Shown one piece after another: positions 6,741 through 64,000 of a stretch of 64,000 nucleotides of DNA. Below the pieces are notes generated by a model. It was given only the letters and a program-made list of their open reading frames with translations, was not told the DNA's origin and made no database searches. How positions within the stretch are numbered: the first letter of the stretch is position 1; each line of letters begins with the position of its first letter. Position numbers and translations under genes: made by a program. Source of the stretch: Terebella lapidaria (taxonomy: Eukaryota > Annelida > Polychaeta > Terebellida > Terebellidae); contig OX424561.1 of assembly GCA_949152475.1 (NCBI GenBank), forward strand, positions 8,370,001-8,434,000, written 5' to 3'.

Positions 6741-6747
6741 CTCAGTG

Positions 6748-7168: not shown

Positions 7169-7238
7169 CCCAGGTGTCCCATGCGTTCGAGGAGAGCCAC
7201 TTGCAGCTTCGACGCTCGAAAGAATGGGACACCAGGGT
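7169..7238. repeat. Hairpin inside the minisatellite edge
   Basis: CCAGGTGTCCCAT...TTCGAG on the left pairs with CTCGAAAGAATGGGACACC on the right, around a short loop. On both sides lie minisatellite words (AATGAGACC on the left, GTGAGACCCATCCAC on the right), so the hairpin looks inserted into the array edge. Confidence 0.55.
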
Positions 7239-7653
7239 GCAATTAAGTGAGACCCATCCACTTTAGGGATGAATTTTCTTAACTGTCCTTTTTGATGTCT
7301 GCACCATTCTGTGGGTGCCTGTTGTTTCTGAGTTGCTAATTTATTGATACTGTATTTAAATTCGTGTCGAGTAGAAAATAAGCTTTCTGGTGATATATGA
7401 TATGTATGGTCTATGTCGAATCAAAGCCACATTATTTTGTATTAAACGATGGTGTTATGGTGAAAAATAGCATGTCTTTCTGGTGAAAATTTGACTTTCT
7501 TCGTTTTGTTTTTGGTTCAATCCATGTGCATTCTATCACTTCGTGCAAAAACTTCATAAACAAATGATATTCTAAAAGTGCAGCACGCAACATCGGTTTG
7601 TTGAGCATAAACCCTGATATTCGAACACATTTTGCGTGTGTCTGCAGATTTTG

Positions 7654-8384
7654 GTGTTCTCCTTTACATTCACTTTACCTGGTTGCAGCATACATCCAAG
7701 TGTATTTTTATCGAAGAACACAGTGAGAATAAAACACTTAAACTGTCCTTTATTCCAGAATATCTTTATATCTAACCACTGTACAACATAATTGTTACAG
7801 TTTTGGGGCTTTCAATAAAAACTGAAATGTTTTTTTTTAAGGATGTGTTCTCCTTTACTGGTATTTCTTTGGATTTCATGGGAATAAATAGCATTGTTAT
7901 GTGTATTCATATACATTGCATGTGAGTGTATCTTGTTAAACAAAGGTCTGATGGAAATCACACAACTGACTTGTTCAGAGGCACAATCAACACATAATAG
8001 GAGTTCTCCTTTACGTGTTCTCCTTTACACCCCATACATGTTATTTGCAATAATACAATTATATTATGACCTCACAATAGAACAAACACCTCCAAGCAAT
8101 AATACAATTGTCATGGCAACAAATAAATAGAATTTTCTTGGCAGTCCATATGTTTGGCTAAAACACCACTCTGTAGACAGATGCCATGCGCTCAACACAG
8201 CTGAAGCAGTAGTAGCTGACACAACTAATTTGGGCGATCAACCAAAGGTATGGTTGCTTACGTAAGCACCTTGTATAGGAGTACTAAATGAGTAATATTA
8301 ATTAATATTATTAACTGAACTGAGCAATAAAATCATCAAATTGAGATGAGGTAAAGGAGAACACATAAAAGTAAAGGAGAACAC
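7654..8384. repeat. Left subterminal motif cluster (GTGTTCTCCTTTAC x6)
   Basis: The 14-mer GTGTTCTCCTTTAC lies at 7654-7667, 7845-7858 and 8015-8028, with a one-base variant at 8001-8014. It is inverted (GTAAAGGAGAACAC) at 8351-8364 and 8371-8384. It was noticed only inside the transposon. Repeated subterminal 10-20 mers are the usual transposase-binding sites of several DNA transposon families, so this is inferred to be the binding array; the pair nearest the gene could also act in its promoter. Confidence 0.8.
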
Positions 8385-8542
8385 AGCTTTTGTGCAACTA
8401 GTTCCAGAACTTTTGGACATATAACATGTGTTATAAATACCACTGCAAAGTGTACCTATGCTACATTGGACTATTTCTATGATAAAAATCATAAATTTTG
8501 ATGAGTAATAGATGGGTAATATTATGCATATATTATCCAGAA

Positions 8543-11199: not shown

Positions 11200-11230
11200 T
11201 TATGAGATATCAGTGAGATTGTACTCAGGA

Positions 11231-11962
11231 GTGTTCTCCTTTACGTACATGTATTTACACATGGTAATGGATAATCGGAATAATTCATAGCGTAAGGAAC
11301 ATTCTGAGAGTGAAGTTACGCTTTGCATGTTTTGTTGCATATATTTGAACAGGCGGTTGAGGCAGAATAAGAAATTACATCCTGAGACAAGGAATATGTT
11401 CGTGATGATTAGTTTCCACATTTTTGGACTAAGAAGTTAATAAAAGTATTTAGGTTCATTGTGGTAATTTGTTTGCTCATTGAATTCACCTTTGCACCAC
11501 CCTGACCATGATTACCCAATACCTCATCATTACAAAACACTAGACAATTTGTGACCTAAAATTGGAATAACTTTTTTCACGTGTTCTCCTTTACATATGA
11601 CAGTTTCCAAAAGCAATGTTTGTATGATGCAGGGCACATGAACTGCGATATTTCATTCAGCATTCTACATTCTCATGACCTTGTTGTGTATATTAAATAG
11701 CTTATGTGCGTACCACCAATATGTACTTTCACTACATATATAATGCAATAATGTCGATGATTTCAAATCGGTGGATTTCATCCACACCCTTTTCTGAACT
11801 TCGTTTTATACTGGATCCAAATACATCATCTAGTGAATGTTCTTACTGGGTGCTTCCAGAACATACCATAATTTTGTAAAACAATTACTTAGTCCAGTTT
11901 GTTTTAAAAGTAATTTCTTATACTTACCACATGCAAAAAACAAATTATGTAAAGGAGAACAC
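11231..11962. repeat. Right subterminal motif cluster (x3)
   Basis: The same 14-mer occurs at 11231-11244 and 11581-11594, and inverted at 11949-11962. The first copy starts 31 bases after the transposase stop codon. Confidence 0.8.
11439..11444 (+). promoter_or_regulatory. Poly(A) signal AATAAA
   Basis: AATAAA lies 240 bases after the transposase stop codon, the first canonical signal noticed downstream of it. Confidence 0.5.
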
Positions 11963-12155
11963 ATGCAAATTGATGGTGATGTGTTACCATTTTCATAAAA
12001 ACAGTATGGTGGGAGCTGGAATCCTGATTTTTTCAATAGAACTTATATTCTGTACTCTGGTTTAGAAAAAATAGCCACAAATACCCTTTATCCAAAGAGA
12101 AAAATATGTATTTTTTTTTAGTGAAAGTGGACAGTTAAGAAAATTTATCCCTTTA

Positions 12156-15100
12156 CATCTCAAAGTTGATGCACAATCATAACCACCAATACATCTCTAA
12201 GAGATGACATGCACAGTGAGACCCATCCACTACATCTCTAAGAGATGATGCACAGTGAGACCCACCCACTTCATCCCTAAGAGATGACATGCACAATGAG
12301 ACCCACTCACTACATCTCTAAGAAATGATGCACAATGGGACCCACTCACTACATCTCCAAGAGATGACATGCACAGTGAGACCCACCCACTTCATCCCTA
12401 AGAGATGACATGCACAGTGAGACCCACCCACTTCATCCCTGAGAGATGACATGCACAGTGAGACCCACCCACTACATCTCTAAGAGATGACCTGCAAAGT
12501 GAGACCCATCCACTACATCTCTAAGAGATGACGCACAGTGAGACCCACCCATGACATCTCTAAGAGATGATGCAGAATGAGACCCACCCACTTCATCTCA
12601 AAGAGATGATGCACAATGAAACCCACCCACTACATCCCTGAGAAATGACATGCACAGTGATACCCACCCACTACATATCTAAGAGATGACATGCACAGTG
12701 AGACCCACTCAATACATCTCCAAGAGATGACATGCACAACGAGACCCAAACACTACATCTCTGAGAGATGACATGCACAGTGAGACCCACCCACTACATC
12801 TCCAAGAGATGACATGCACAACGAGACCCAAACACTACATCTCTGAGAGATCACATGCACAACGAGACCCAAACACTACATCTCTAAGGGATGACATGCA
12901 CAATGAGACCCTCTCACTACTTCCCTAAGAGATGACATGCACAATGAGACCCACCCACTTCATCCCTAAGAGATGACATGCACAATCAGACCCACCCACT
13001 TCATCCCTAAGAGATGACATGCACAATGAGACCCAACCACTTCATCCCTAAGAGATGACATGCACAGTGAGACCCACCCACTTCATCTCTAAGAGATGAT
13101 GCACAGTGAGACCCATCCACTACATCTCTAAGAGATGATGCAAAGTGAGACCCACCAACTTCATCCCTAAGAGATGACATGCACAATGAGACCCACACCA
13201 CTACATCTCTAAGAGATGACATGCACAGTGAGACCCATCCACTACATCTCTAAGAGATGATGCACAGTGAGACCCACCCACTTCATCCCTAAGAGATGAC
13301 ATGCACAATGAGACTAACCCACTTCATCCCTAAGAGATGACATGCACAATGAGACCCACCCACTTCATCCCTATGAGATGACATGCACAGTGAGACCCAC
13401 CGACTTCATCCCTAAGAGATGACATGCACAATGAGACCCACCCACTTCATCCCTAAGAGATGACATGCACAGTGAGACCCACCCACTTCATCCCTAAGAG
13501 ATGACATGCACAGTGAGACCCAACCACTTCATCCATAAGAGATGACATGCACAATGAGACCCACACAACTACATCTCTAAGAGATGACATGCACAGTGAG
13601 ACCCATCCACTACATCTCTAAGAGATGATGCACAGTGAGACCCACCCATGACATCTCTAAGAGATGACATGCACAGTGAGACCCACCCACTTCATCCCTA
13701 AGAGATGACATGCACAATGAGACCCACCCACTACATCCCTAAGAGATGACATGCACAGTGAGACCCACCCACTACATCCCTAAGAGATGACATGCACAGT
13801 GAGACCCATCCACTACATCTCTAAGAGATGATGCACAGTGAGACCCACCCATGACATCTCTAAGAGATGACATGCACAGTGAGACCCACCCACTACATCT
13901 CTAAGAGATGATGCACAGTGAGACCCACCCATGACATCTCTAAGAGATGACATGCACAGTGAGACCCATCCACTACATCTCTAAGAGATGATGCACAGTG
14001 AGACCCACCCATGACATCTCTAGGAGATGACATGCACAGTGAGACCCACCCACTACATCTCTAAGAAATGATGCACAATGAGACCCACTGAGACCCACTT
14101 CATCCGTAAGAGATAACATGCACAATCAGACCCACCCACTTCATCCCTAAGAGATGGCGTGCACAATCAGACCCATCCACTACATCTCTAAGAGATGATG
14201 CACAGTGAGACCCACCCATGACGTCTCTAAGAGATGACATGCACAGTGAGACCCACCCACTTCATCCGTAAGAGATAACATGCACAATCAGACCCACCCA
14301 CTTCATCCCTAAGAGATGACATGCACAATCAGACCCACCCACTTCATCCCTAAGAGATGACATGCACAATGAGACCCACCCACTACATCCCTAAGAGATG
14401 ACATGCACAGTGAGACCCATCCACTACATCTCTAAGAGATGATGCACAGTGAGACCCACCCATGACATCTCTAAGAGATGACATGCACAGTGAGACCCAC
14501 CCACGACATCCGTAAGAGATAACATGCACAATCAGACCCACCCACTTCATCCCTAAGAGATGGCGTGCACAATCAGACCCATCCACTACATTTCTAAGAG
14601 ATGATGCACAGTGAGACCCACCCATGACATCTCTAAGAGATGACATGCACAGTGAGACCCACCCACGTCATCCCTAAGAGATGACATGCACAATCAGACC
14701 CACCCACTTCATCCCTAAGAGATAACATGCACAGTGAGACCTAACCACTTCATCCCTAAGAGATGACATGCACAGTGAGACCCACCGACTTCATCCCTAA
14801 GAGATGACATGCACAGTGAGACCCAAACACTACATCTCTAAGAGATGATGCACAGTGATACCCAACCACTTCATCCCTAAGAGATGACATGCACAGTGAG
14901 ACCCAAACACTACATCTCTAAGAGATGATGCACAGTGATACCCAACCACTTCATCCCTAAGATATGACATGCAAAGTGAGACCCAAACACTACATCTCTA
15001 AGAGATGATGCACAATGAGACCCACTCACTACATCTCTAAGAGATGACATGCACAGTGAAACCCACCCACTTCATCTCTAAGAGATGATGCACAGTGAGA

Positions 15101-15422
15101 CCCACCAACTTCATCTCTAGGAGATGATGCACAATGAGACTCATCCACTACATCCCTATGATATGACATGCACAGTGAGACCTACCCACTTCATCTCTAA
15201 GAGATGATGCACAGTGAGACCCACCCACTACATCCCTGAGAAATGACATGCACAGTGAGACCTACCCACTTCATCTCTAAGAGATGATGCACAGTGAGAC
15301 CCACCAACTTCATCCCTAAGAGATGATGCACAATGAGACCTACCCACTACATTTCTAAGAGATGATGCAAAATGAGACCGACCAATACATCTCTAAGAGA
15401 TGATATGCATAGTGAGACCCAC
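12156..15422 (+). repeat. 38-41-bp minisatellite array, forward orientation
   Basis: About 80 units of the type CATCYCTAAGAGATG-(ACAT)-GCACARTGAGACCCACCCACT. Most variation is presence or absence of a 3-4 base insert (GATGACATGCAC versus GATGATGCAC), Y/R substitutions, and TTCAT/TACAT alternation. Higher-order blocks recur, for example around 13,790-14,040. Each unit holds the near-palindrome CATCTCTTAGAGATG. Open frames in the array (about 13,007-13,222 and 14,383-14,646, minus) are by-products of the repeat. Confidence 0.95.
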
Positions 15423-15645
15423 CATATTGCCTTCACAAATAAATTGTGTATCCTTCCTTGAGGATATACTGAATAAAGTACTAATTAATCTGTTCAGTAA
15501 CCGTACCACCTGCATATAGATTCTATATTTGCAATAATGCAATATCCATCGTTTGTTAACAAGCCAGATTTGCCTGCCATGTTGCCTTGTTTTGTGTTGA
15601 CAAGCATTGGATTGTATTGTTTTAGTGGTGACATCCATCATCAAA

Positions 15646-18600
15646 ATGGAAGAGGGTGCAACACCCCTGAAGGAACAGCTGGAGCTGTCTGAGATGGTGC
15701 TGAGGCATCTGGTAACAGAACTTGCACTCCTAGAAAATGACATGGACCCCCACATTGTGCATGGTAAGAGAGGGACCTGTACATATATTATAACAAGTCA
15801 CCTGAAAGCCTAGAACAGTGTCTGAATAGAAAAGCTTCCTGCTAATGGCATTACATTCCTGGAGCTGGATTGTACATATTACACAATGTGTTCCACATAT
15901 TTATTTATGCTAGATTGTTTCTATGGACATATGAGAAACACATGTATTGCCACATGTACTTTAATGTCTGAGTGCATGGCTATTGAAATTACTATTTATT
16001 ATCTGGATTTCCAGTTTCACCTGCTGTAATATCATCAGAAGAGCCGGCCAGCAATCTAATCCCAAGATCATCATTGGAAATTCCTTGCCCTCTATGTCCT
16101 GTCACGAAGATAGCCATGAAAAAGAGTGTGCTAATCCGCAAACACATGAGGCAATTCCATGAAAAACACAGCTTCATCCATGAAGGTATTTATTTTAGTT
16201 TCTACTTGGTGTCATAATACTTGTATGATTAATTACTATTTAGTGTAAATTTGTGATAACAACCAAACTTGTCCTCGACAGACAAGAAATATCTGCTGTG
16301 CCGACTCCCATGTAGCCCCAAGATTGGAGCACACTATCACTGCCCTTGTGGGACGGTGAGGGTCAGGAGGTCGGTGGCCCTCAAACACGTCCAAAGCTGT
16401 CCTGGGTTGAAAGGTATTGGCTCTTATATGTATCGTGTATATATACAGGCCAAGATAACAAAGATCCCATTCACAGGTCATGTGGCGACTCATTTTTACA
16501 GCCCTTGAAATGTTATTAGGGCATTTCGGCACGAAATGTCCTATGGTTTTGTCTGAGTTTTTTCTTCTTGTTTTTCTTTCACTTTCTGGCAGTTTCTGCC
16601 ATTTTGTTTCCTCGCGATATAACCCAAGAATGCCGGAGATCCGAGGTCAGTGAGGTCCATGAGGATGAAATATATGTAAATTTTTGGACTTTGTTTCCGC
16701 ACAATAACTCAAAAAGTATTCAGGCAATGGCTGCAAAACTTTGCATGGAGGTTCATATATCACCAGAGAAGAACTCGGTCGATTTTGGGGTCATCTGGTC
16801 AAATGACCTTCGACCTAGAGCTCTGAAGAATTTTTGCTGAGTCATCCATGAGGCTTCCTGCATATCTGGAAAATGGTGCATTGTATAGCGAAACGGATGT
16901 TATTTTCAGACTCTTCGCCCTAGACAACATGTCTAAAGCCATATTATGGATGAACTTTGACCTTGACATAAAATTTTTTTGCTGAGTCAGCATGTTTCGT
17001 TTTTGTCTATATCTCAGAAACAGTGCGTCATGAAGTGAAACGGGCGTTATTTTCGGACTCGTTGCCCTAGACAAACATGTCTAAGGGCTATTATGGAAGA
17101 ACTTTGACCGTAAATTTTTTCGCCGAGTCAGCATTTTTCGTTTTCGTCGATATCTCGGAAACGGTACATCATAGATCGAAGTGTACACTATGTTCGGACT
17201 TATTGCTCTAGACAAACATGCCTGATGTGTATTATGGATGAATTTTTACCGTGGCCCAATTTCAGACGAAATGCCCCAAGGCATCTTTAGGCCTTGATGT
17301 CTAGTTTGTATTAACATGGTCAAGATGTAGCCATTTAGTTTAAATAACAACTATTACATGATTCATCCAGTGCCACCCATGATGACTGACCAAAATGGGA
17401 CATTGCCCTCATCCACGCCAAGTGTGACAGCCACGCCTAGAGTGACATTGTGCTCAGCCACGCCAAGTGTGATAACATCCTCAGCCGTGCCAAGTGTGAT
17501 AACATCCTCAGCCACGCCAAGTGTGATAACATCCTCAGCCGCGCCAAGTGTGATAACATCCTCAGCTGCGCCAAGAGTGACATTGTCCTCAGCCACGCCA
17601 AGTGTGATAACATCCTCAGCCGCGCCAAGTGTGATAACATCCTCAGCTGCGCCAAGAGTGACATTGTCCTCAGCCACGCCAAGTGTGATAACATCCTCAG
17701 CCACGCCAAGTGTGATAACATCCTCAGACGTGCCAAGTGTGATAACATTCTCAGCCACGCCAAGTGTGATAACATCCTCAGCCGCGCCAAGTGTGATAAC
17801 ATCCTCAGCTGCGCCAAAAGTGACATTGACCTCAGCCACGCCAAGTGTGATAACATCCTCAGCCACGCCAAGTGTGATAACATCCTCAGCTGCACCGAGA
17901 GTGACATTGTGCTCAGCCACGCCAAGTGTGATAACATCCTCAGCCACGCCAAGTGTGATAACATCCTCAGCCGTGCCAAGTGTGATAACATCCTCAGCCA
18001 CGCCAAGTGTGATAACATCCTCAGCCGCGCCAAGTGTGATAACATCCTCAGCCACGAGATACTTCAAGGAGCACAAAAAGATTAATTGTGACATTTGTCA
18101 GAAATGGATATCACATCAGAACTTCAAGCGTCATGTCGGAACGCACAAGGTGAATGCTTCAACCACTGCTGTATGTGTGGATGGTGTAAACGGCATATAC
18201 CTTGTTGATCCTCAAACAAAGGGACCAGCTCATCCAATACATGTATGTGCTAAGATTAGAGGTGCTTCTTCCTCATTTCTCTGCTCTAAGAAAGATTGTT
18301 CTGCTATGGCCGGTCCAGCATATAGGGGCCATCAAAACTATGTTTGTCGTCATGTCCTCTCCGCCTTGAATGTATCCTCTTCCACACCAGTTATCGAACT
18401 ATGTGAACTTAGTGACGTTTGCATGTCTGAGCACATGCAGAAATCTGTAGGAAATCTGAAGGATGAGGCAGAAAAGTTACACAGGCCACTCATTGTGAAG
18501 TACCCCAACAGTGGGAAAATGGAGTACTTCTCAGTTTTCGCTGGACACAATACCCATCTCACTGATTTTGGGAGAATCTTGGTCACACTGGACAAGGAAT

Positions 18601-21600
18601 CAGTAAGGTGTCCCTGTTCAGGACCTCGCCACAACTGCGTCCACAAAGCTGTTGTCAGGTGGGCTGTGTGTCTGAGTGACACCCCAGAAAACATATCTGC
18701 AGAAGTCAGTACAGAAGAAATCTCAGCCGATGTTTGCTCCACTCTCCCCAACACCGAGGGTGATGTAAAAATCGTTGACCAAAACTTCCTTGCTTTGGAC
18801 AATTCAGTTAGTCGGGACAACCTGATGCCTGAACATGTGTCATGCAAGTTGTGTGGCAGTCCACTTCTTCTCAAGTTGGTGACAAAATCTGGGAGAATAG
18901 TTGACAGGGACTTCATACAAACAGGTACATGTAAAAGTTATTATCATGATTATGTACATGTATAATAAATAAATCAATTAGTCAATCACACATAGTTTCA
19001 TTCAATTTCATGTTGATTTAATGTGAGGGAAAAGTATGATATATATATGTTTTATTTATTTAGATATATATGTATTCATTGCATTAAATTTCAGGGATTT
19101 CAATATATGTGAAAGAGTGCCAGGGCTGCCATCATGTCATACACTATTCTGGGATCGAGGATGGGCTCCTAAACCATGACAATCATGTAGTTGTCACTCT
19201 TCAGTTTTGCAAGTGGTTGCGGATAGCAATAAAGGTGGGCAGGTGATCAACTCCCATGCTGTTGATTGCTGACATACTGAATATATTCCACACACCACGA
19301 TATGTTATTGTTAAACTGGATATAGTTTTGAATACAGCATGAATAAATATTGCTCAACTTCACCCAAAAAGGAATTCATTGTTTCAGTTGTATACTTGTA
19401 CTCTATTCCAGCATCACACTGCACTTGCTACCGAATTGGCAAAATTGCAGGAAAGCAATGGCTTCGACTATCCCCCGAGTACAACATTATTGAATGCATA
19501 CATGAAGTTTGAGGTCTTGTGTCAACATTCCTATGACTACTGTTGTGTCGAATGTGGTCGATACCCACCTATCATAATCACAGATGTCAACAAGAAGTGT
19601 TGTTTTAGACTGAAAAGTAAGCCAAATATCTGCCCTTTTAAATGTAAGAGTAACTCTTTCTTTGGCGAATTGGCATTATAAAATTCAAAGTTCGAAGACT
19701 CATCATTAAAACTCCTCATTATATTATGCTGATTATTCAGACCTAGTCATATATTTATTCTTTTGAGGGTTAAAAATTTTGGCATATAAAACCTTCTCAC
19801 ACACTAATACCTGGTAATTTTGTGGTGTTTGGTACAATGCAGTTGATGAAGTAGGTGGTGTCGAAAAAGCTGTTGACGAGGTTGAACTGGAGAAGTTCTG
19901 GAATGCTGTTGAGAATGACATCATGAAACCAGGTAAATGTATTACTGGTAAAAATAAAATTTGAAGGAAATTTGAAAACTCAGCACATGTACAATGAAGA
20001 ATGATATTCATTTCTTGTTTCTGTGTTTGATCACTAGTCTTGTGTCTGATTGTCATTGTCAGCACACACTCATAGGACTTGTATTTGCTGAATTTGATTC
20101 ATTGTTCACAGGTCAGAAACATGTCAGTGTGACTTATGACTTTTGGGCACCCTTCCTTGGTAAAGCACGTCATGACAATGTGTGCATCAACACGGAATAC
20201 AAGAAAGTGGGACAGGAAAAGGAGTCAGTGTCAGCTGCATGTAGTGAGAATGCTGAGAACACTGATGACTTGTCTCTTACAGAAGACTTACTGTTGGAGC
20301 TAATGACAGAGAAAAAAGTAAGTATATGCCTTGCTCAGCATTTGGAATATTAAACTAACAAAGGATAATAATTTTGTTTCTCAGGAGCACATCACTTCCA
20401 GGTAATTTCTACTAACATGTTGCACCTTCTTCCCATGTTACATATAATTGGTAGCATAAACAAAAGTTATGAAAAACTTCTGAGATTTTATGTGCAGAAA
20501 GGAAATTTTCTCGTCTCGTGACGAATACATGTATGCAAAAACATTGGTCACTGTATTTGTTTGAGCTACAGCACATTTTATGACATGTGTAGTTTCACAA
20601 ATTTATACTGTAATGTATAGGATTTTGGACATGTTGGCATACTTTTTAGGCCAAAAAATCATTAACAGTCATTCAGAACTACTGTTTTTTAGGTTATCGG
20701 ACCTATGGTCCGATAATCTATTGTCGTGGCTTTGAGTCCATCGTCCATCCGTTGTCCGTCCGTTCACATTTTTGTCTTTAAAGTTCACATATATGGCACA
20801 GCTAAGGATGACCTTGAACTTGACCTCCGAGTGCCAAATGTCTGACTCGGGTGCCAAATGTCTGACTCGGAATGTGTAAATAAGCCTAAGCGGCCTAAAC
20901 GCTTGCACCCAGATATATCTTTGTATTATGAACTTATAGAAAATCAAATGCCGCACACGTACATGTAATGGTGACATTGAAGTTCACACAGATGACGTTG
21001 ATTGGTAAATCTCGAGGTCTGTTACCTGCCATGGCCAAACCAAATTTGTCCGGTAACCTATCTTGGCCTTTGGGCAAATTTTGCTTTTTCTCACTCGCTT
21101 GGGGATGCTGCTGCACCGACTACCAATTAATCTTACATCCGTCTACATTAAATACAGTTTAGACTGAATGACTACAACTCTTTCAGCTACGAGATATTCG
21201 CAAGGTGTGCAGAAGTGTTGGCGTCAATGATAAGGGGAGCAAAATGGACTGTTTGCAGCGATTGCGAAACAAACTTCAAAACAAAGACCTGTGTAAGAAG
21301 ATCTTCACTAAATTCGTTGGTTCATCAGGTAAGCTGGATACTCTTGCCAATAATAAAAATCCATGAAAATAATTCAAACTGAATATTTTATGTATATCCC
21401 TGTTTGAAAACTAACTTGTACATATATGTAATTTGAGTTGGGATGTCAGAATTGATATTCAAATTTCGTATCGAACACAAAGTGCACCAAGCACAAAAAT
21501 CAGTTGAAAACTTTGTATTACCAGCACACTATGTTAGCAGACGAGCATACTATAATGGGCTTTTTCATGCGATATCAGATTTACCTGCAATATCTAACAC

Positions 21601-24600
21601 TTCAGGTGGATTGTTGGTCGCATGTTGCCCCCATGGCATAGTGTATGCTGTCAAGTTCCTACTCCGTGGTGAAAGCCCAAGGGATCACGTGGACATCATT
21701 CAGTCCTTCTCTCACCAGCCAAGTCTACTCATCTGTGATATTCCAAGTTTTGTTGCCCGGCATGGTAACAACAGAAATCCCCATATGTTTGACCCACAAG
21801 ATGGACGCTTTGCAGAGCCCACTTCTGAAAATTTAGCTAAGCTAGCAGCGGGCAAACTCAAGGTTTCAATACAAGAACTGGATTGTGCTGGCTTGCTATT
21901 CAAATCTAACTTGGATGAACACACATATTCCAAGACACGACACCCAGTTACCCATCTGACGAGTCATTTCTGTGGGTATGATAGATTTCATGAGAACAAT
22001 ACTTCAAGCAAACAAGAACAACTGAGGCGTGTGGATATCGTTCCCCAGTGTAGCGGACTGAACACTCAGGTGGCTGAGGAATTTTTTTCACTGATCGACA
22101 AGTGTCGCTATTTCCTCACACAAATGTCTCCTGTTCACCACATATTCCTGGTTAGGCTCTTCTGCCACCTACGAAATGAGGACAAAAACAAGCAACGACT
22201 CAAGATTCTACAGAAACAAGTATGTGACACACTGAAGCAGTGTTCCCTGAGCACAACACCGGATGGGAGAGTGTTTATCTGTGGAGACACGGATGCAAGA
22301 AACAAAGATTCATGGGCATCAAACATATCACCAGTCCTTCAGATGTCTGACCAGTCTTCAGATGTTGATGAAGAGTCTGAAGATGAACTTGCCACACGAG
22401 ATGAGAAAACATCCAGTAAGAAACCCACCCCAAACTTCGCCACTCAAGAAGAGTCTGAAGATGACCTTGCCACACGAGATGAGAAAACATCCAGTAAGAA
22501 ATCCACCCCAAACTTCGCCACTCAAGAAGAGTCTGAAGATGACCTTGCCACACGAGATGAGAAAACATCCATTAAGAAACCGACCCCAAACTTCCCCATT
22601 GGAGACGAGTCTGGAAATGACCTTGTCACACGAGATGAGAAAACATCCAGTAAGAAATCCACTCCAAAATTTGCCACTCAAGACGAGTCTGAAGATGACT
22701 TTGCCACAAAAGACTATAAAACATCCAGTAAGAAACCCACCCCAACCTTTGCCACTCGAAACGAGTTTGAAGATGACTTTGCAACACGAGATGAGAAAAC
22801 ATCCATTAAGAAACCCACCCCAAACTTTGCCACTCGAGACGACCATGCAAGTTCTCCAAATTGTGAGTGCTTTAGTTTAACAATCCAGAAAAAAAATTAG
22901 TCTGAAGGAACATCAACCGTAACATAATGAAGCATATTATACATATACTCACAAATTCACTATGCTTTCTATCAGTGTTGTAACTCTTTGTTTCTATAGG
23001 CCACTTAGATCGCAAAAGGAAACAGAGTGAACAACAAAACTCACAAAAAGCAACTAAGAAACGGAAATTGGTTCGCTTTGGTGAGTAGATGAAAATTTAA
23101 CCAAAAAAACCCATAAATATAACAATTGAACAAAAAACTTGCTTGTGTGTTGTGAAATGCAATATTATTCCAAATTGATTTCATATTTTACGCATACATA
23201 TATGCAGTAACATTTCTTAATTTTCCAGTTGATGATTCATCTGTGCCAGTCGTGTTTGGGATTGCGCATGCCTCAAGGGAAGGCATGGTCCTTGCCAGGA
23301 TTGGTCCATACGCACTTACTGCTGGGGACTTTTTGAGCTTAGAGAATATGAACTGGCTGACAGACCAAGTGAATATACCTAATTGCCTCATCCAGATAAT
23401 AACCGTAATATTTCTTGTGGAAGAAAGCCAGTTGTTTAAACTACAGGATTTTTGCTGTGCATTTCAATGTTTTATCTTCCGCAGATCATTGATTCATATC
23501 TTCACCTTATAACGGCTGAACGAGATGATGTCTTGCACCTGTCCACACAGACCATGACGACCATCATCAACATGAGTTACAGCGATTCGAGGCCACCCCT
23601 TCAGAAGGTATTATATTCCATAATATTTGGATTATTACCTTGAGATTTTGCAAACCAAGTGGGAAGCTCCTGATTAAAAATACACTGTTTAGCCAGCAGA
23701 ATGCAATTGAATTTGTGCTTTTTGACATGAAACTCAGGATTAATCTCTTTAAATGTACAGGTAAAACTGCTTGACTACAATTTGATTTTGGGCATTTACC
23801 ATCAAGGACAGGCCCACTGGACTGCAATTGTGAGTTGTGATTTTAAATCAATTTAGATTTAATCGAATGGCCATCTGTCTGTAATTTAGCATCCCGATTG
23901 AAAATCGGGAGGCCTCATGTTTTTTGTCTGAATGGCTGATGCAAAATCAATGCTAACACTAGCGCATACTTCATCACTTGATCATTACTCTGCATAAATG
24001 TATGCATGCACCGATATGTAGATAGAAATAATTTTCTCCTTTATTTTGTGTTCAGCCTGTACTGTTTATTTTCGAATTGTATGTCTTCAAGGTTATCCAT
24101 AATCCTACTGGTGAAATAGTGTATTATGATCCCTACGGAGAGAAAGAACCTATGCTCAATAAGATTGAAGAAAGCTGGAGGTTATTGCCATAACATTTGT
24201 TGTAGAACAAATTAGTTCATATTCCTGTGTTTATTTCTGTGTTTTGTTTTCCATACAGAAATATAGTGACAATTTGTCCACCCATTTTCTACTAATAACA
24301 TGTCCAGCTCATGTACTAATTGTTAACTGTTGTGTTGACTGAGGGAATCCCATGTCGTGTTTTAACAAGAAGGAGGAATATCAGATGAGTCATGAGGGTA
24401 TTTAACTAACCTGAACAGCTAGTTAAATAGATATTCCTCCCATCAAAACATGACATAAGATTGTCTTTCTGACCCACCAACCAATAGAAACAACCATTTT
24501 ACTCCCTAAATCGTTGAAAAGTCGTACCTTTCATGTTGTATCAGAAAAATATGATAACATATTTTGAATGTTTCTCTGTGTGACTCTAAAGCATTGGTAT

Positions 24601-25901
24601 TGGTAACAACAAAGTGATGTCCCTTGACCCTTGAAATAGACAATATTCTTTTACATGTAGGAATGTATTATTTTGCTATTCCTGATATTTTTGTTTCATT
24701 ATGACTTCAGGTGGTTTTTCAGCCTTCAAGAGATGACTCTGAGCAGCAGCTCAAGACGGTACAAAGCTGTGCGTTCACGCTGCGTACGCAGACAAACACA
24801 AAGAGATCACAGTAACTGTGGGGTTTATTCATTGAAGGTATTTTCATTAAGAATATACAAATGTGTCATTGTCAACTAGGAATGACCTATAGGACAATTT
24901 AAAATGAATGTGTGTTGTGAATGTGTGTTGTCCCAAGGTGAAATATTCAATTTTCTTCTGGTAGTTTGTGCATGACACCATATGCACAGAGTCCATCGCT
25001 ATGCCCTCTGCTATTGATGGAAGGAAATTCCTGGCCAGTACATTGTATGAAAACTCAGGTGTGTTTTTTTTTACATTACTACAATACGTTGAACTTGCAA
25101 AAGCCTTTAGGTGATAAGATTTCTCATATGTCAGTACAATTATCACAGAGGGATAAGCATGTGGTGATGGTAGTCTTATTATATATAAATTATTGTCCTA
25201 TACACATGATACATTACCTCCATAATACTACACGGGTAACTCCTAACAGCCTACCGAATGGACCTTGTCGCCGGTGGTCTTTCGACAGTTGTGTTAACTC
25301 TGGGATCAACCTCATGTGGACTTGTTTGCCACTAGTTGGAACAACAGGCTCCCCACCTTTGTGTCACCAATCCCAGACCCCCTAGCTTGGGGTGTTGATG
25401 CTATGAGGGGTCATTCTTTATTCTTCCCGATATGAAAGGTTTCTGTATGGGGGAGCCTAATTTAAGTAGGCTGTTAGGAGTTACCCGTGTAGTATTATGG
25501 AGGTAAGTATAGAAAATAATACTAGTTCTAACCTTTGAAACGACGATTTCCAACATTGAGCATCCTAGAATCATCACATGTATATGACATGAATAGTAAC
25601 TTTATGAATACTTTACATTCTGTCTTTCTTCGATTTTGTTCATTTGTATTTATACAGATATGAGAGATGTTAGCTGCATCAGGTGTGGTTTGGATGATGA
25701 AAAAGCAAACTTGGTATGTATGGTATATGAATGATATTGGATAAGTATGGAATATAGAGGGATCAAGTGAGTAACCATTCGATATATTGTTTAATATTGT
25801 GTTTTCAGGTGGTCTGTTCGAAGTGTTCTGGTCGCTTTCACAAACTTTGTACACCAGCGCCGAAGCGACCATGGAATGTTTGCTTCCTTTGCAAGATGTA
25901 A
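15646..25901 (+). CDS. KDZ/Zisupton-type transposase-derived protein with Ulp1-like and PHD domains
   Basis: Nineteen exons join in phase: 15646-15763, 16015-16185, 16282-16413, 17371-18924, 19095-19234, 19412-19616, 19843-19932, 20112-20317, 21187-21328, 21450-22862, 23000-23080, 23229-23368, 23485-23607, 23761-23829, 24092-24180, 24711-24837, 24965-25058, 25658-25713, 25809-25901; about 1680 residues. In order: CPLC...HMRQFH finger (~64-88); Cys/His-rich exon 3; 9-residue repeats (~166-369); C2H2 finger (~380); SWIM finger CPC...CVH (~554); candidate catalytic D763, SAP-like segment (~873-902), D1016 in CDIPSF, E1129/E1130 in NTQVAEEFF; six 26-residue acidic/Lys repeats; basic NLS-like KKRK; Ulp1-like H1524, D1541, Q1588, C1594; PHD finger C1638 to C1678 (C4HC3). 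KDZ transposases and vertebrate HMGXB3 share this core. Intron-rich and unbroken: host gene or intron-bearing transposon. Exon 10's start could instead be 21606. Confidence 0.85.
16517..17304 (+). mobile_element. Helitron-like non-autonomous element, copy 1 (intron 3)
   Basis: The left end has the hairpin GGGCATTTCG-gca-CGAAATGTCC. The right end has hairpin AAGGCATCTTTAGGCCTT about 10 bases before a terminal CTAG followed by T. A 3' hairpin plus CTRR end is the Helitron signature; the 5' end does not begin with the canonical TC. The interior has degenerate repeated blocks (GATATCTCRGAAAC..., GGACTCRTTGCCCTAGAC). It sits in intron 3 of the large gene. Sister copies lie at 26.1 and 39.3 kb. Confidence 0.6.
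17445..18055 (+). repeat. 27-bp coding minisatellite in exon 4, about 23 copies
   Basis: The unit reads GTGATAACATCCTCAGCC plus nine bases and encodes VITSSATPS, VITSSAAPR or VTLSSATPS. All copies keep 27-bp phase. Because the unit is a multiple of three and lacks stops in several frames, long open frames also exist out of frame on the plus strand and in two minus frames. Ser/Thr/Pro/Ala-rich composition suggests a flexible linker. Confidence 0.95.
20691..21085 (+). mobile_element. Dispersed repeat family B, copy in intron 8
   Basis: It begins with the palindrome GGTTATCGGACC-tat-GGTCCGATAATC, continues GTCCATCCGTTGTCCGTCC...CACATTTTTGTCTTTAAAG and ends CCGGTAACC...TTGGCCTTTGGGC. The same ends recur at 28.35-28.92, about 48.8 and 55.88/59.49 kb. 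No protein is encoded. The class is uncertain; terminal hairpins suggest a rolling-circle or other non-autonomous element. Confidence 0.65.
22372..22848 (+). repeat. 78-bp coding tandem repeat in exon 10, six copies
   Basis: Six units encode variants of a 26-residue block containing ESEDDLATRDEKTS and KKPTPNFATQ. Frame is preserved throughout. The DNA repeat also gives long open frames in other frames, which are not genes. The block is acidic then Lys-rich and probably disordered. Confidence 0.95.
24350..24462. repeat. Small foldback repeat in intron 15
   Basis: ATGTCGTGTTTTAAC and GGAGGAATATC on the left pair imperfectly with GATATTCCTCC and CAAAACATGACATA on the right. Probably a short decayed MITE; no target duplication was assigned. 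Confidence 0.55.
25217..25503. mobile_element. TA-flanked MITE in intron 17
   Basis: Inverted ends of about 39 bp: the left begins CCTCCATAATACTACACGGG and the right is its near-perfect reverse complement ending GTATTATGGAGG. TA dinucleotides flank at 25215-25216 and 25504-25505. A TA target suggests Tc1/mariner-type mobilisation. The arms are almost identical, so the insertion is probably young. Confidence 0.8.
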
Positions 25902-25956
25902 ATGTGAAATCTTGTCATGAATTTCAAGCAATTTTCACTGCTCCTAGGAATATGTA

Positions 25957-26098
25957 AAATTGTTTTCCTGTAATTAGTGTGAACTATGTTCATATGTATT
26001 CATTTACATGTGTGATGTCATTATATGTAAAATGGTTTTCCTGTAATTAGTGTGAACTATGTTCATATGTATTCATTTACATGTGTGCTGTCATTAAG
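25957..26098 (+). repeat. 73-bp direct duplication downstream of the KDZ gene
   Basis: Two adjacent copies of TTTTCCTGTAATTAGTGTG...ATTTACATGTGTGMTGTCATT lie just after the stop codon at 25901, in the presumed 3' UTR. They differ at only a few bases. Confidence 0.85.
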
Positions 26099-26589
26099 AC
26101 ATTTCTGCAGAAATGCCTTTATGGTTCTGTCAAAAAAAATTTTTTTTTTTTTCATATTTTTTCACTTTTTCGCTTTCTGCACGATAACTTTAGGTTGCCT
26201 AGATGGATCTTCGCTAAATTTTCACCGCTGGTCAGAAATGTTGTGTAGAAGAAGACAAACATGTTTGAGGGATTTTATGGATGACCTTTGACCTTGACCT
26301 TAAATTTCGGCATTTTTGGTTTTCGTTGATATCTTGGAAACGATGCGTAGTAGTGCGAAACGGACGTTATTTTCGGACTCGGGGCCCCAAGCAAACATAT
26401 CTGAGGGGCACTAGAAATGAACTTTGACCTTGACCTGAAATTTTTTTGCCGAGTCGGGATTTTTCATTTTCGTCGATATCTTAGAAATAGTACATTGTAG
26501 AGCAAACGGACGTTATTTTCAGAATCGTGGCTCTTTTTCTCGTGCATCACCCTGGAATGCCTCCAATGCCTTTAGGCCTTGACGTCTAG
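26095..26589 (+). mobile_element. Helitron-like non-autonomous element, copy 2
   Basis: The left end (ACATTTCTGCAGAAATGCC) folds as in copy 1. The right end is AATGCCTTTAGGCCTTGACG then TCTAG followed by T. The interior shares GATATCTTGGAAACG and GACGTTATTTTCGGACTC with copy 1 but is shorter. Confidence 0.6.
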
Positions 26590-26599
26590 TTTAATATTG

Positions 26600-27225
26600 T
26601 TTACCCAGTATATACCTCTGATGTTCTCGGATATTGTTTGCTCAGCAGTGTAAATCAGGAGGTATGTGTTTTTGAATATTGTTTGCTCAGCAGCGTAAAT
26701 CAGGAGGTATGTCTTCGGATATTGTTTGCTCAGCAGTGTAAATCAGTAGGTATGTCTTTGGATATTGTTTGCTCAGCATTGTAAATCAGGAGGTATGTGT
26801 CTTTGGATATTGTTTGCCCAGCAGTTTGGATATTGTTTGTTCAGCAGCGTAGATCAGGAAGTATGTGTCTTTGAATATTGTTTGCACAGCAGTGTAAATC
26901 AGGAGGTATGTCTTTTGATATTGTTTGCTCAGCAGTGTAAATAAGGAGGTATGTGTCTTTGAATATTGTTTGCTCAGCAGTGTAAATAAGGAGGTATGTG
27001 TCTTTGAATATTGTTTGCTCAGCAGTGTAAATAAGGAGGTATGTGTCTTTGAATATTGTTTGCACAGCAGTGTAAATCAGGAGGTATGTCTTTTGATATT
27101 GTTTGCTCAGCAGTGTAAATAAGGAGGTATGTGTCTTTGAATATTGTTTGCTCAGCAGTGTGTATATTGTTTGCTCAGCAGTGTAAATCAGGAAGTATGT
27201 GTCTTTGCATACTGTTTGCTCAGCA
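26600..27225 (+). repeat. About 45-bp minisatellite, roughly 14 copies
   Basis: The unit is ATATTGTTTGCTCAGCAGTG followed by TAAATCAGGAGGTATGTGTCTTTGA (41-45 bp). Some units are truncated. Open frames inside on both strands are by-products of the 45-bp period and are not called as genes. Confidence 0.9.
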
Positions 27226-27710
27226 GTCTTGTAGGCTATCTTTAAATTTAGCCAAGTTTATTTTGTGTCCGTGCCCTTTTTCAGAGTACTGAGGGTGTGG
27301 TTTGCTAGATGTGTGTAGGTGATATTTCTTAAGTAGTCAAATACATTTCATGTGCAACATGTGAGTCATGAATTTTTGGTGAAATTATTGATGGATTCTC
27401 ATGGTATTTCATGAATAGTGTAAGTATATATAGTAATAGCTTAGAACTACAACGGGTTAGTTAGAAATACTACACATAAAACTACACCGTGCATATCCAT
27501 GTTGCAAGTACAAATATTAAAACTTGCCTGCTGATTCATGTTGAATTACAATGTATTTTACCAAAATATTGGGATTTCTTTCTAAATTTTGTTGGCAGAT
27601 GTGTTCTCACGCCAGGTGTTACTATTTTGTTAAACACATTGCCAATATTAGAATATGCAAATTTGGAAGCTTAACTCAAATCTATAATGAATGTGTGAAT
27701 GTAACTATAC

Positions 27711-28236
27711 TCTGATTTTTCTAACTCGTTTACACAGTTTTTCGCTGATATTTTTGCGATGCTGAATGCTATCGTTCTATAACTTGACATACTTCACCTG
27801 GGAATCAAACGGCAATCATTAACCGAATTTCAGATTTCTATCACGAAAATTGAAAAAGTTGTCAATCTACCCCAATGTTAAATTTAGCCTTGTCATTTGA
27901 TTTCTGGGTCCGCACACAATTTCGTGCATTTGTTCGGTTTTGTAGCAGTGCAATCTTTCAAAATCAACATGTTTGTGTAGGATACACCCCAATGTGTCAT
28001 CTGGTCTAAAATTATAACAATACTTCGAATCCTGGTGGATGTTAAGAGGATTAAATCCTCAAATAAGCTCAGATTCTCGAGATCCCGTTTTTGGGTGAAA
28101 TTTAACATTGGGGTAGATTGCCAACTTCTTTAATTATTGTGATAGAAGTTTGCAAAGTTATAAAACGATACCATTTAACATTGCAAAGATATCGTCAAAA
28201 ACCTGTGTAAACAAGTTAGAAAAATCAGAGTATAGC
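27711..28236. mobile_element. Palindromic MITE with a second palindrome nested inside
   Basis: Outer ends: CTCTGATTTTTCTAACTCG on the left and GTTAGAAAAATCAGAG on the right, flanked by TA on both sides. It is related to the element at 6.75 kb. The interior (27,866-28,115) is itself an inverted pair: CTACCCCAATGTTAAATTT on the left and AAATTTAACATTGGGGTAG on the right. The inner pair is absent from the 6.75-kb copy, so it looks like a second insertion. Confidence 0.75.
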
Positions 28237-28345
28237 AGTATTATTTAACTTTGCGAATCCAATATGATTGCAATGTTATGTTTTTCCCGATGCACACACA
28301 AGAATGTACTTGTATTACATTAAAAATTATTTGTGTTTTACAAAT

Positions 28346-28921
28346 CCGGTGACCTATGGTCCGATAACCTATTGCCATCATGTTGTGTCCGTAGTGCGTC
28401 GGTCTGTCCTTCCACATTTTATGGTTACCGGAACTGTGTTCTGATAACCTATTGCCGTGGCATTGAGTCCGTCGTCCATCCGTTGACCGTCCATTCACAT
28501 TGCGTCCGTCTGTCCGTTCACATTTTTATCTTAAAAGTTTATGGTTCCCTTCCATGTAAATTAGCCACTGGAACTTGAACACTTGCACACACAGGTTATG
28601 AGTGTGTATAAGCTTAGAAGAAGTCATTTTGTATATGGCATATCTTTTGGTGATCTTGAATTTGACTTTAATGACCTTGAAGGCCAAATCTCAAAATCTT
28701 GCCTGACCTGACATGTGAAAATGGTCCTCTCCAGACAAAACTTTTGTATGATAAAGCTTATATGTTTGTAGTATGAACATATATAAATTCATATGCAGCA
28801 TACCTAAAGGTAACATTGAAGTTCACAAAGATTATTAGTAAATCTCAAGGTCATATGTCACATGCAATGCTTAAAACCAAAATTGTCCGGTAACCTATGG
28901 TAGCTTTTGGGCTATTTTTTT
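28346..28921 (+). mobile_element. Dispersed repeat family B, copy with duplicated head
   Basis: Head-type sequence occurs twice (from 28,346: CCGGTGACCTATGGTCCGAT; from 28,424: GGTTACCGGAACTGTG). The tail matches the family: GTCCGGTAACCTATGG...CTTTTGGGC. The interior contains GACCTTGAAGGCC-like words related to the 58.3-59.4 kb array. Confidence 0.65.
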
Positions 28922-28929
28922 TTTGGTTT

Positions 28930-29168
28930 AAAACTGTTTTCATCACTTTGCCCTGGATGCAAGATAACTTCCTAACTCCTTTGCAATAAGGTTCATTGTT
29001 TACAAAACCAATCAACTCATTTATTCATTGGAATTAATTCTCATGTTTTATTGGCATTAAAATTACATGTACCTAAGTCTTCAATTGTGAATATAAATTT
29101 AGTACAAAAATAAATGTTACTCAATTGGTTATGAAAACATCGTTTATTATTCATTACATACATAATGG
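28930..29168. other. AT-rich spacer, nothing recognised
   Basis: Simple AT-rich sequence between repeat family B and the inverted minisatellite array; no gene or signal is seen. Confidence 0.5.
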
Positions 29169-31530
29169 AGCAGGTGAGTCTCACTGTGAAGTGGGTGGGC
29201 ACACTGTGCATCATCTCTTAGAGATGTCGTGGGTGGGTCTCACTGTGCATGTCATCTCTTGAAGTGGTTAGGTCTCACTGTGCATGTTATCTCTGAGGGA
29301 AGTAGTGGGTGGGTCTCACTGTGCATCATCTCTTAGAGATGTCGTGGGTGGTTCTCACTGTGCATGTCATCTCTTTAGAGATGAAGTGGGTGGGTCTCAC
29401 TGTGCATGTCATCTCTTAGGGATGAAGTGGTTGGGTCTGACTGTGCATCATCTCTTAGAGATGTAGTGAGTGGGTCTCATTGTGCATCATCTCTTAGAGA
29501 TGTAGTGGTTGGGTCTCACTGTGCATCATCTCTTAGGGATGAAGTGGGTGGGTCTCACTGTGCATCATCTCTTAGAGATGTAGTGTTTGGGTCTCACTGT
29601 GCATGTCATCTCTTAGGGATGAAGTGGTTGGGTCTCACTGTGCATCATCTCTTAGGGATGTAGTGGTTGGGTCTCACTGTGCATCATCTCTTAGGGATGT
29701 CGTGGGTGGGTCTCACTGTGCATGTCATCTCTTAGGGATGTAGTGGGTGGGTCTCACTGTGCATCATCTCTTAGGGATGTAGTGGGTGGGTCTCACTGTG
29801 CATGTCATCTCTCAGGGATGAAGTGGGTGGGTCTCACTGTGCATGTCATCTCTTAGGGATGTCGTGGGTGGGTCTCGCTGTGCATCATCTCCTAGAGATG
29901 TAGTGGATGGGTCTCACTGTGCATGTCATCTCTTAGGGAAGTAGTGGGTGGATCACACTGTGCATGTCATCTCTTAGAGATGTAGTGCTTGGGTCTCACT
30001 GTGCATGTCATCTCTTAGGGATGAAGTGGTTGGGTCTCACTGTGCATCATCTCTTAGGGATGTAGTGGTTGGGTCTCACTGTGCATCATCTCTTAGGGAT
30101 GTCGTGGGTGGGTCTCACTGTGCATCATCTCTTAGGGATGTAGTGGGTGGGTCTCACTGTGCATGTCATCTCTCAGGGATGAAGTGGGTGGGTCTCACTG
30201 TGCATGTCATCTCTTAGGGATGTAGTGGTTGTGTCTCACTGTGCATCATCTCTTAAAGATGTCGTGGGTGGGTCTCGCCGTGCATCATCTCCTAGAGATG
30301 TAGTGGATGGGTCTCACTGTGCATGTCATCTCTTAGGGAAGTAGTGGGTGGATCACACTGTGCATGTCATCTCTTAGGGATGAAGTGGGTGGGTCTCATT
30401 GTGCATCATCTCTTAGAGATGTAGTGGGTGGGTCTCGCTGTGCATCATCTCTTAGGGATGTAATGGGTGGGTCTCACTGTGCATCATCTCTTAGGGATGT
30501 CGTGGGTGGGTCTCACTGTGCATGTCATCTCTTAGGGATGTAGTGGGTGGGTCTCACTGTGCATCATCTCTTAGGGATGTAGTGGGTGGGTCTAACTGTG
30601 CATGTCATCTCTTAGGGATGTAATGGGTGGGTCTCACTGTGCATCATCTCTTAAGGATGTCGTGGGTGGGTCTCACTGTGCATGTCATCTCTTAGGGATG
30701 AAGTGGGTGGGTCTCACTGTGCATCATCTCTTAGGGATGTCGTGGGTGGGTCTGACTGTGCATGTCATCTGTTAGGGATGTAGTGGGTGGGTCTCACTGT
30801 GCATCATCTCTTAGGGATGTCGTGGGTGGGTCTCGTTGTGCATGTCATCTCTTAGGGATGAAGTGGTTGGGTCTCACTGTGCATCATCTCTTAGAGATGT
30901 AGTGGTTGGGTCTCACTGTGCATGTCATCTCTCAGGGAAGTAGTGGGTGGGTCACACTGTGCATGTCATCTCTTTAGAGATGAAGTGGGTGGGTCTCGCT
31001 GTGCATGTCATGTCTTAGGGATGAAGTGGGTGGGCACACTGTGCATCATCTCTTAGAGATGTCGTGGGTGGGTCTCACTGTGCATGTCATCTCTTTAGAG
31101 ATGAAGTGGGTGGGTCTCACTGTGCATGTCATCTCTTAGGGATGAAGTGGTTGGGTCTGACTGTGCATCATCTCTTAGAGATGTAGTGAGTGGGTCTCAT
31201 TGTGCATCATCTCTTAGAGATGTCGTGGGTGGGTCTCACTGTGCATCATCTCTTAGAGATGTAGTGTTTGGGTCTCACTGTGCATGTCATCTCTTAGGGA
31301 TGAAGTGGTTGGGTCTCACTGTGCATCATCTCTTAGGGATGTAGTGGTTGGGTCTCACTGTGCATCATCTCTTAGAGATGTAGTGTTTGGGTCTCACTGT
31401 GCATGTCATCTCTTAGGGATGTAGTGGGTGGGTTTCACTGTGTATATCATAGAGATGAAGTGGTTGGGTCTCACTGTGCATATAAATTATTAGAGATGAG
31501 TGGATGGGTCTCACTTTGGATAATATTTCA
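29169..31530 (-). repeat. 38-41-bp minisatellite array, inverted orientation
   Basis: About 60 units of the same family as 12.16-15.42 kb but on the opposite strand (CATCTCTTAGRGATGWAGTG, then GGTGGGTCTCACTGTGCATG on the plus strand). Blocks of several units recur almost exactly, for example 29,390-29,480 versus 31,115-31,205 and 29,880-29,960 versus 30,285-30,365, showing block duplication within the array. The last units (31,430-31,530) are degenerate. Confidence 0.95.
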
Positions 31531-63990: not shown

Positions 63991-64000
63991 AATTATTGAT

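What the first reader, a model, noticed from the sequence alone, without database searches (positions are those of the whole stretch)
15646..25901. Intact 19-exon KDZ transposase-derived gene combining SWIM, SAP, Ulp1-like and PHD modules
Every exon joins in phase and the core, protease-like and PHD residues all look preserved. A single chain that could bind DNA, remove SUMO/ubiquitin-like modifiers (H1524, D1541, Q1588, C1594) and read histone tails (PHD) would be a remarkable chromatin or transposition factor. KDZ/Zisupton elements and HMGXB3 are the nearest relatives I recognise.
Basis: partly seen in the sequence, partly recalled or inferred. Interest (0 to 1): 0.8.

Follow-up and report, generated by a model that had tools for sequence, protein, structure and literature searches.

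The report
Recently active KDZ/Zisupton-type animal transposon
The 19-exon gene is not a host chromatin factor but the transposase gene of a large jumping gene that has recently inserted at several places in this animal's genome, and whose two arms are built from kilobases of one short repeat facing each other.

Summary
It is not a host gene: it is the transposase gene of a recently mobile DNA transposon, window 6410-31782.

The animal's own genome holds 9 young left ends (99-100%) and 8 young right ends (96-100%), which pair into 8 elements. Of these, 7 have exact 8-bp target duplications and one matches at 7 of 8 bases; 0 of 56 cross-pairs reach 7. Inside imperfect terminal inverted repeats lie kilobase arrays of one 39-41-bp unit in opposite orientations. 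Three of five fetched copies keep all 19 exons, splice sites and one stop, differing by 0.1-0.3% outside the repeats.

The predicted protein (1,401-1,628 aa) joins C2H2, SWIM-like, CxC4, SAP, KDZ-like, Ulp1/SENP-like and PHD modules. The 8-bp duplications, CxC4 and a profile match point to Zisupton/KDZ, but the chain does not reach the Pfam KDZ model. Ulp1+PHD tails (Ginger1) and foldback-type arms (Galileo) are known elsewhere, so I call it a new variant of a known kind. Boehne 2012 and Iyer 2014 could not be read here.

The parts
6402..6409 (.). left 8-bp target-site duplication ATAAATTT
   Evidence: identical to 31783-31790
6410..31782 (+). whole transposon copy (25,373 bp including a nested insertion)
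   Evidence: homology with other copies starts and stops here, flanks unrelated
6410..6438 (+). left terminal inverted repeat, 29 nt, 22 of 29 matching the right tip (my count on the sequences)
   Evidence: ungapped block 18 of 20 at 6419-6438 / 31754-31773
6439..6455 (+). exact copy of the array core ATGCACAGTGAGACCCA directly behind the left TIR
7266..12151 (+). nested DNA transposon inside this copy, absent from the C6 and C11 copies; not part of the element proper
12154..15423 (+). left array, 39-41-bp units (76 units cut out)
15646..15763 (+). exon 1 (start codon at 15646)
   Evidence: dN/dS 0.24 and 0.13 against two older relatives
16015..16185 (+). exon 2, C2H2-like motif
   Evidence: motif read by eye, no Pfam hit
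16282..16413 (+). exon 3, CxC/HxxxC motif
   Evidence: motif read by eye
17371..18924 (+). exon 4: 27-bp coding array, C2H2-like finger, SWIM-like CxC..CxH, start of CxC4; 5' limit uncertain
19095..19234 (+). exon 5, CxC4
19412..19616 (+). exon 6, candidate first catalytic Asp (IIITD), by motif only
19843..19932 (+). exon 7
20112..20317 (+). exon 8
   Evidence: relatives in L015 and L019
21187..21328 (+). exon 9, SAP-like
21606..22862 (+). exon 10, KDZ-like core (CDIP Asp, QVAEE Glu) and 78-bp coding array 22370-22839
23000..23080 (+). exon 11, basic stretch
23229..23368 (+). exon 12, start of Ulp1-like domain
23485..23607 (+). exon 13, Ulp1-like
23761..23829 (+). exon 14, Ulp1-like, catalytic His
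24092..24180 (+). exon 15, Ulp1-like, catalytic Asp
24711..24837 (+). exon 16, Ulp1-like, catalytic Gln and Cys
24965..25058 (+). exon 17, end of Ulp1-like domain
25658..25713 (+). exon 18, first half of PHD finger
   Evidence: below cut-off
25809..25901 (+). exon 19, second half of PHD finger and stop
   Evidence: below cut-off
29165..31540 (-). right array, same unit in opposite orientation (55 units cut out)
31541..31782 (+). right terminal segment; inverted repeat 31754-31782
   Evidence: 99-100% identical in 4 of 4 other fetched copies
31783..31790 (.). right 8-bp target-site duplication ATAAATTT

Best explanation
A full-length, recently inserted copy of a cut-and-paste DNA transposon of the KDZ group, Zisupton type by its 8-bp duplications, carrying one multi-exon gene for its transposase. 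SHOWN: exact ends; 8-bp duplications; several near-identical insertions at unrelated places; three copies with an intact 19-exon frame; inverted arrays of one unit; internally deleted derivatives sharing the ends. INFERRED: an RNase-H-type DDE core makes 8-bp staggered cuts; zinc-finger, SWIM-like, CxC4 and SAP modules bind the tips and the array units, so the arrays are amplified binding sites; the Ulp1-like protease removes SUMO-like tags from the transposase or from host silencing or repair proteins; the PHD finger tethers the complex to histone tails. The confidence given is for the transposon and its gene; I put about 0.5 on arrays being amplified binding sites and about 0.5 on a SUMO/ubiquitin-protease role in transposition.
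For: 9 left ends at 99-100% of 12 matches and 8 right ends at 96-100% of 27 matches pair into 8 elements of 1.36 to 41.3 kb; 8-bp duplications exact in 7 of 8, 7 of 8 bases in the eighth (C11), against 0 of 56 cross-pairs with 7 or more. Homology stops at 31782 in 4 of 4 other fetched copies (in C6 the aligner ran on 7 bases) and starts at 6410. In the window copy, C1:78.27M and C6 all 19 exons, all splice dinucleotides and one final stop are kept; the exon-4 array of C6 is shorter by exactly two 27-bp units. Array units are as alike between arms as within (0.820; 0.824; 0.828), with 5 unit sequences shared exactly. The array core lies exactly behind the left tip and nowhere in the window outside the element, even with two mismatches. 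CxC4 above cut-off; profile match to a genuine KDZ protein of the same genome, probability 75.5%, E 2.4e-5. Older relatives show constraint: exon 1 dN/dS 0.24 and 0.13; exon 10 pN 0.29-0.44 at saturated pS 0.78-0.85.
Against: The chain gives no PF18758 hit and its place is not among the 14 PF18758 matches of the genome; best relative 14.2 bits against a cut-off of 26.6. In the profile alignment the Glu motif lines up but the CDIP Asp does not. The fold of exon 10 was mediocre (pLDDT 67) and matched nothing significantly. First catalytic Asp placed by motif only. Nearest neighbours of array units lie mostly in the same arm (51 of 55 for right, 47 of 76 for left), so the arms evolve partly on their own. 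The right tip has only a loose (3-edit) copy of the array core, in the same orientation as the left one, not mirrored. Between young copies 6 changes are non-synonymous and 2 synonymous, so no selection is visible there. No transcript data.
Confidence: 0.95

Rival explanations
1. A domesticated host gene of the HMGXB3 kind, derived from an old KDZ transposon.
For: Multi-exon gene, intact frame, homologues in other animals including Capitella.
Against: Gene sits inside element ends with 8-bp duplications; near-identical copies on C1, C6, C7 and a deleted one on C11. No HMG-box hit in the pieces scanned.
Confidence: 0.02
2. Two proteins instead of one: a KDZ-like transposase (exons 1-10) and a separate Ulp1-PHD protein (exons 11-19), by separate transcripts or alternative splicing.
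For: No RNA data; no single Pfam match bridges exons 10 and 11.
Against: All exons join in phase; a partial Capitella gene model carries SAP, the KDZ-like part and a stretch like the start of the Ulp1 domain in one chain (alignment score 54, best of 2000 shuffles 45).
Confidence: 0.15
3. A Mutator/Rehavkus/foldback lineage element, not KDZ.
For: Rehavkus carries a PHD finger and a minisatellite (PMC6446971, passages); SWIM fingers are common in Mutator-like elements (same passages).
Against: 8-bp, not 9-bp, duplications; CxC4 and KDZ profile similarity; no Mutator transposase Pfam hit in the pieces scanned.
Confidence: 0.06
4. The inverted arrays are passive expansions of a minisatellite within the element and play no part in transposition.
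For: The 6.0-kb copy lacks the left array and the 1.36-kb derivative keeps 17 units of one orientation only; the two older relatives show only about 8-10 motif copies in their 3-kb loci.
Against: Core motif exactly behind the left tip and absent elsewhere in the window. The derivatives may have been deleted after insertion.
Confidence: 0.45
5. Segmental duplications rather than transposition made the copies.
For: Copies are nearly identical.
Against: Same end points at unrelated flanks, each with its own 8-bp duplication.
Confidence: 0.01

Closest known systems
Zisupton / KDZ DNA transposons (PMC12730594 and PMC9297572, passages seen; Boehne 2012 and Iyer 2014 recalled, not held)
   Same: 8-bp duplications, TIRs, many-exon transposase gene that resembles a host gene, KDZ-associated cysteine cluster
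   Different: kilobase inverted arrays as arms; SAP, Ulp1 and PHD on the chain; about 20 kb without the nested insertion (fish Zisupton is 11 kb with 24-nt TIRs, recalled); Pfam KDZ model not reached
Ginger1 transposons (PMC2836005, passages)
   Same: transposase with C-terminal Ulp1, and in Ginger1-9_HM Ulp1 plus PHD
   Different: Gypsy-integrase-type core; no such arms described in the passages seen
Galileo / Foldback elements (PMC3573991, passages; PMC4022104, passages)
   Same: long inverted arms with internal tandem repeats of varying number, proposed as secondary transposase sites
   Different: P-superfamily transposase in Galileo; here a KDZ-like one
Rehavkus and other Mutator-like elements (PMC6446971, passages)
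   Same: PHD or SWIM fingers and a minisatellite
   Different: 9-bp duplications; different transposase
HMGXB3
   Same: CxC4 cluster associated with KDZ transposases (recalled for HMGXB3)
   Different: no HMG box found here; this is a mobile element
SENP/Ulp1 SUMO proteases (Pfam PF02902; PDB matches)
   Same: catalytic His, Asp, Gln, Cys aligned
   Different: part of a transposase chain; activity untested

Membership tests
Zisupton / KDZ DNA transposons | 8-bp target-site duplications | tested here: met
   7 of 8 elements exact, eighth 7 of 8 bases; 0 of 56 cross-pairs at 7 or more
Zisupton / KDZ DNA transposons | terminal inverted repeats | tested here: met
   imperfect, 22 of 29 by my count, with an 18-of-20 block at equal distance from both tips
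Zisupton / KDZ DNA transposons | KDZ transposase domain (PF18758) | tested here: inconclusive
   no hit for the chain; place not among the genome's 14 matches; relative P0006 14.2 bits against 26.6; profile-profile match 75.5%, E 2.4e-5
Zisupton / KDZ DNA transposons | KDZ-associated cysteine cluster (CxC4, PF18717) | tested here: met
   29.3 and 31.8 bits, cut-off 26.9
Zisupton / KDZ DNA transposons | catalytic Asp-Asp-Glu | tested here: inconclusive
   Asp of CDIP invariant in 12 and Glu of QVAEE nearly invariant; first Asp by motif only; searches for exon-6 relatives did not complete
Foldback-type arms (structural class) | long inverted arms with internal tandem repeats | tested here: met
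   both arms in 4 of 5 compared copies, right arm only in C1:76.0M
Ulp1/SENP proteases (C48) | C48 domain above cut-off with His, Asp, Gln, Cys | tested here: met
   49.7 bits, cut-off 20.7; residues aligned to SENP5
Ulp1/SENP proteases (C48) | cleavage of SUMO or ubiquitin-like substrates | not testable with these tools
   needs an assay
PHD fingers | PHD domain above cut-off | tested here: inconclusive
   23.4 bits, cut-off 24; C4HC3 spacing present by eye (pattern recalled)
SAP domains | SAP domain above cut-off | tested here: inconclusive
   14.8 bits, cut-off 23.9; exon conserved in Capitella and in relatives in L015, L017, L018, L020
Mutator / Rehavkus | 9-bp target-site duplications | tested here: not met
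   duplications are 8 bp
HMGXB3 | HMG box | tested here: not met
   no hit in the pieces scanned; the two coding arrays were left out of the scans

The most novel reading that the evidence does not exclude
An animal KDZ transposon has amplified a tip-proximal binding site into kilobase inverted arrays, so that one large transposase can coat and pair both arms, and the same chain carries its own de-SUMOylating protease and histone reader to lift or steer SUMO-dependent silencing: a self-contained, chromatin-editing foldback transposon.
Probability: 0.25. Interest if true: 0.78.

Novelty: new variant of a known kind. Interest (0 to 1): 0.55.

Why it matters
It gives a precisely delimited, recently mobile KDZ/Zisupton-type element of an animal, with three intact coding copies and short derivatives sharing its ends. 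That makes three questions testable: what protease and PHD tails do in transposition, whether inverted tandem-repeat arms are amplified binding sites, and how such elements meet host silencing. It also shows how a many-exon transposase can pass for a host chromatin gene.
Full report
All 18 introns are GT-AG and the frame is open to one final stop. Some joins are confirmed by homology: CxC4 covers the end of exon 4, exon 5 and the first residues of exon 6; Peptidase_C48 covers exons 12-17; the join of exon 9 to exon 10 is confirmed by a Capitella teleta protein, 66 of 102 residues identical across it. The other joins rest on phase and splice sites, and on being kept in two more copies. The start of exon 4 stays open because its 27-bp array offers many in-phase acceptors, so the protein is 1,401 to 1,628 aa.

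DOMAINS. Above Pfam cut-off: CxC4 and Peptidase_C48. Below cut-off: SAP and PHD. By motif only: C2H2-like fingers and a SWIM-like CxC..CxH; the exon-4 finger and the SWIM-like motif are conserved in the homologue P0012. The protease's His, Asp, Gln and Cys align with SENP5. Exon 10 has 11 homologues among 232 scored candidates, all E 1.4e-26 or better, 37-55% identical. In the alignment of 12 the Asp of CDIP is invariant and the Glu of QVAEE nearly so. PF18758 is not reached: no hit for the chain, the window's place is not among the 14 PF18758 matches in the genome, and the best relative has 14.2 bits against 26.6. A profile of this family against a genuine PF18758 protein of the same genome (L006) gives probability 75.5%, E 2.4e-5 over 164 columns, with the Glu motif lined up but not the CDIP Asp. 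I take KDZ descent as likely, not proven.

IT IS A TRANSPOSON. Two arrays of one 39-41-bp unit lie in opposite orientations on either side of the gene. Mean identity of units is 0.824 within the left array, 0.828 within the right and 0.820 between them, and 5 unit sequences are shared exactly; but nearest neighbours lie mostly in the same arm, 47 of 76 left and 51 of 55 right. Searching the animal's own genome (762 Mb, 438 contigs) with exon 10 gave 20 matches: identical proteins at C1:78.27M, C6:23.67M and C7 (the window), an almost identical one at C11:35.72M, a partial one at C1:76.04M, and more distant ones. In 40-kb stretches around the four other copies, homology ends at window 31782 in 4 of 4 (in C6 the aligner ran 7 bases further) and starts at 6410 in C6, C11 and C1:76.04M; the left end of C1:78.27M came. 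In the window a nested transposon, 7266-12151, which C6 and C11 lack, separates the left end from the left array.

ENDS AND DUPLICATIONS. 9 of 12 left-end matches are 99-100% identical (one of them over 197 of 250 bases) and 8 of 27 right-end matches are 96-100% identical over the full 250 bases. Eight elements have both: 1.36, 2.15, 6.0, 12.3, 14.8, 22.4, 25.4 and 41.3 kb. The 8 bases beside the two ends are identical in 7 of 8; in C11 they match at 7 of 8. Cross-pairing different elements gives at most 6 matches in 56 pairs. The tips match as inverted repeats at 22 of 29 positions (my count).

INTACTNESS AND AGE. Of the five copies compared, three (window, C1:78.27M, C6) have all 19 exons, all splice dinucleotides and one final stop; two (C11, C1:76.04M) are internally deleted. 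Exon 4 of C6 is shorter by exactly two 27-bp units. Outside the coding arrays, C1:78.27M differs from the window at 4 of 3,760 exon and 5 of 5,846 other bases, C6 at 7 and 17; in the coding arrays they differ at 4 and 52 of 1,127. Constraint is visible only against older relatives: exon 1 dN/dS 0.24 and 0.13, exon 10 pN 0.29-0.44 with saturated synonymous sites.

ARMS. The unit core ATGCACAGTGAGACCCA lies exactly at 6439, directly behind the left TIR, and nowhere in the window outside the element even with two mismatches. Near the right tip there is only a three-edit match, in the same orientation. Both arms are present in four of the five compared copies; C1:76.04M has only the right one. The 1.36-kb derivative keeps 17 motif copies of one orientation. 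Two older relatives show about 8-10 motif copies in their 3-kb loci, which fits later expansion. Whether the deleted derivatives moved in that state cannot be told.

HOW IT PROBABLY WORKS. Shown: ends, duplications, several insertions, intact coding copies. Inferred: DDE cleavage, binding of tips and arrays, SUMO removal, chromatin tethering. Tandem repeats in arms as secondary transposase sites are proposed for Galileo (PMC3573991, passages); roles of Ulp1 domains in transposition are proposed in the Ginger paper (PMC2836005, passages).

COMPARISON. PMC12730594 (passages) gives 8-bp duplications for Zisupton and 7 bp without TIRs for Kyakuja. PMC9297572 (passages) describes multi-exonic nematode Zisupton genes that look like host genes, with proteins up to 1,400 aa, TIRs but no duplications found. 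PMC12062965 (passages) tells of CxC7 and an F-box in fish Zisupton. Ulp1 plus PHD on a transposase is known in Ginger1-9_HM; PHD plus minisatellite in Rehavkus (PMC6446971, passages). In the held library no paper holds both Zisupton and Ulp1; 7 hold Zisupton and minisatellite, of which I opened one, and the passages seen do not describe such arms. Boehne 2012 and Iyer 2014 are not held and Repbase was not available, so priority is not established. The fish Zisupton's 11 kb, 24 exons and 24-nt TIRs, and the HMGXB3 relation, are recalled.

VERDICT. A real and well-preserved feature: a recently mobile, foldback-armed variant of a KDZ/Zisupton-type transposon, not a host chromatin factor.

Noticed in passing
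window 7266-12151: Nested DNA transposon: about 23-nt TIRs, TTTA duplicated at 7262-7265 and 12152-12155, empty sites in the C6 and C11 copies. It holds a 731-aa frame (8495-10687) with no Pfam hit at E 0.1 and, by eye, Asp/Asp/Glu-like motifs.
   Followed up: partly
window 35225-36332 and 46310-47132: Two small foldback-like elements with inverted arrays of a 21-bp unit (TCGACTTATTATCTCGATAAA) and outer inverted repeats.
   Followed up: partly
window 25214-25506: Short insertion-like element with perfect 41-nt inverted repeats inside intron 17.
   Followed up: no
L016, L017, L018 (C12, C4, C11): Relatives at 39% to exon 10 that are 99-99.97% identical to each other at the DNA level: perhaps a second young subfamily.
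   Followed up: partly
G000 C4:36.77-37.23 Mb: Cluster of right ends at 80-81% identity (9 full-length rows): possible local amplification of an older relative.
   Followed up: no
L002-L009: Canonical PF18758 (KDZ) matches elsewhere in the genome: 14 places, 8 cut out as loci.
   Followed up: partly
window 56663-58197 (- strand): Tyrosine-recombinase-like and RNase-H-like frames, both just below Pfam cut-offs: perhaps a DIRS-like retroelement.
   Followed up: partly
window 63644-64000 (- strand): Reverse-transcriptase-like frame at the window edge, weak Pfam hit, Penelope-like by eye.
   Followed up: partly
window 60852-61157 and 62886-63191: 306-nt inverted repeats, 93% complementary, 1.7 kb apart.
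   Followed up: no
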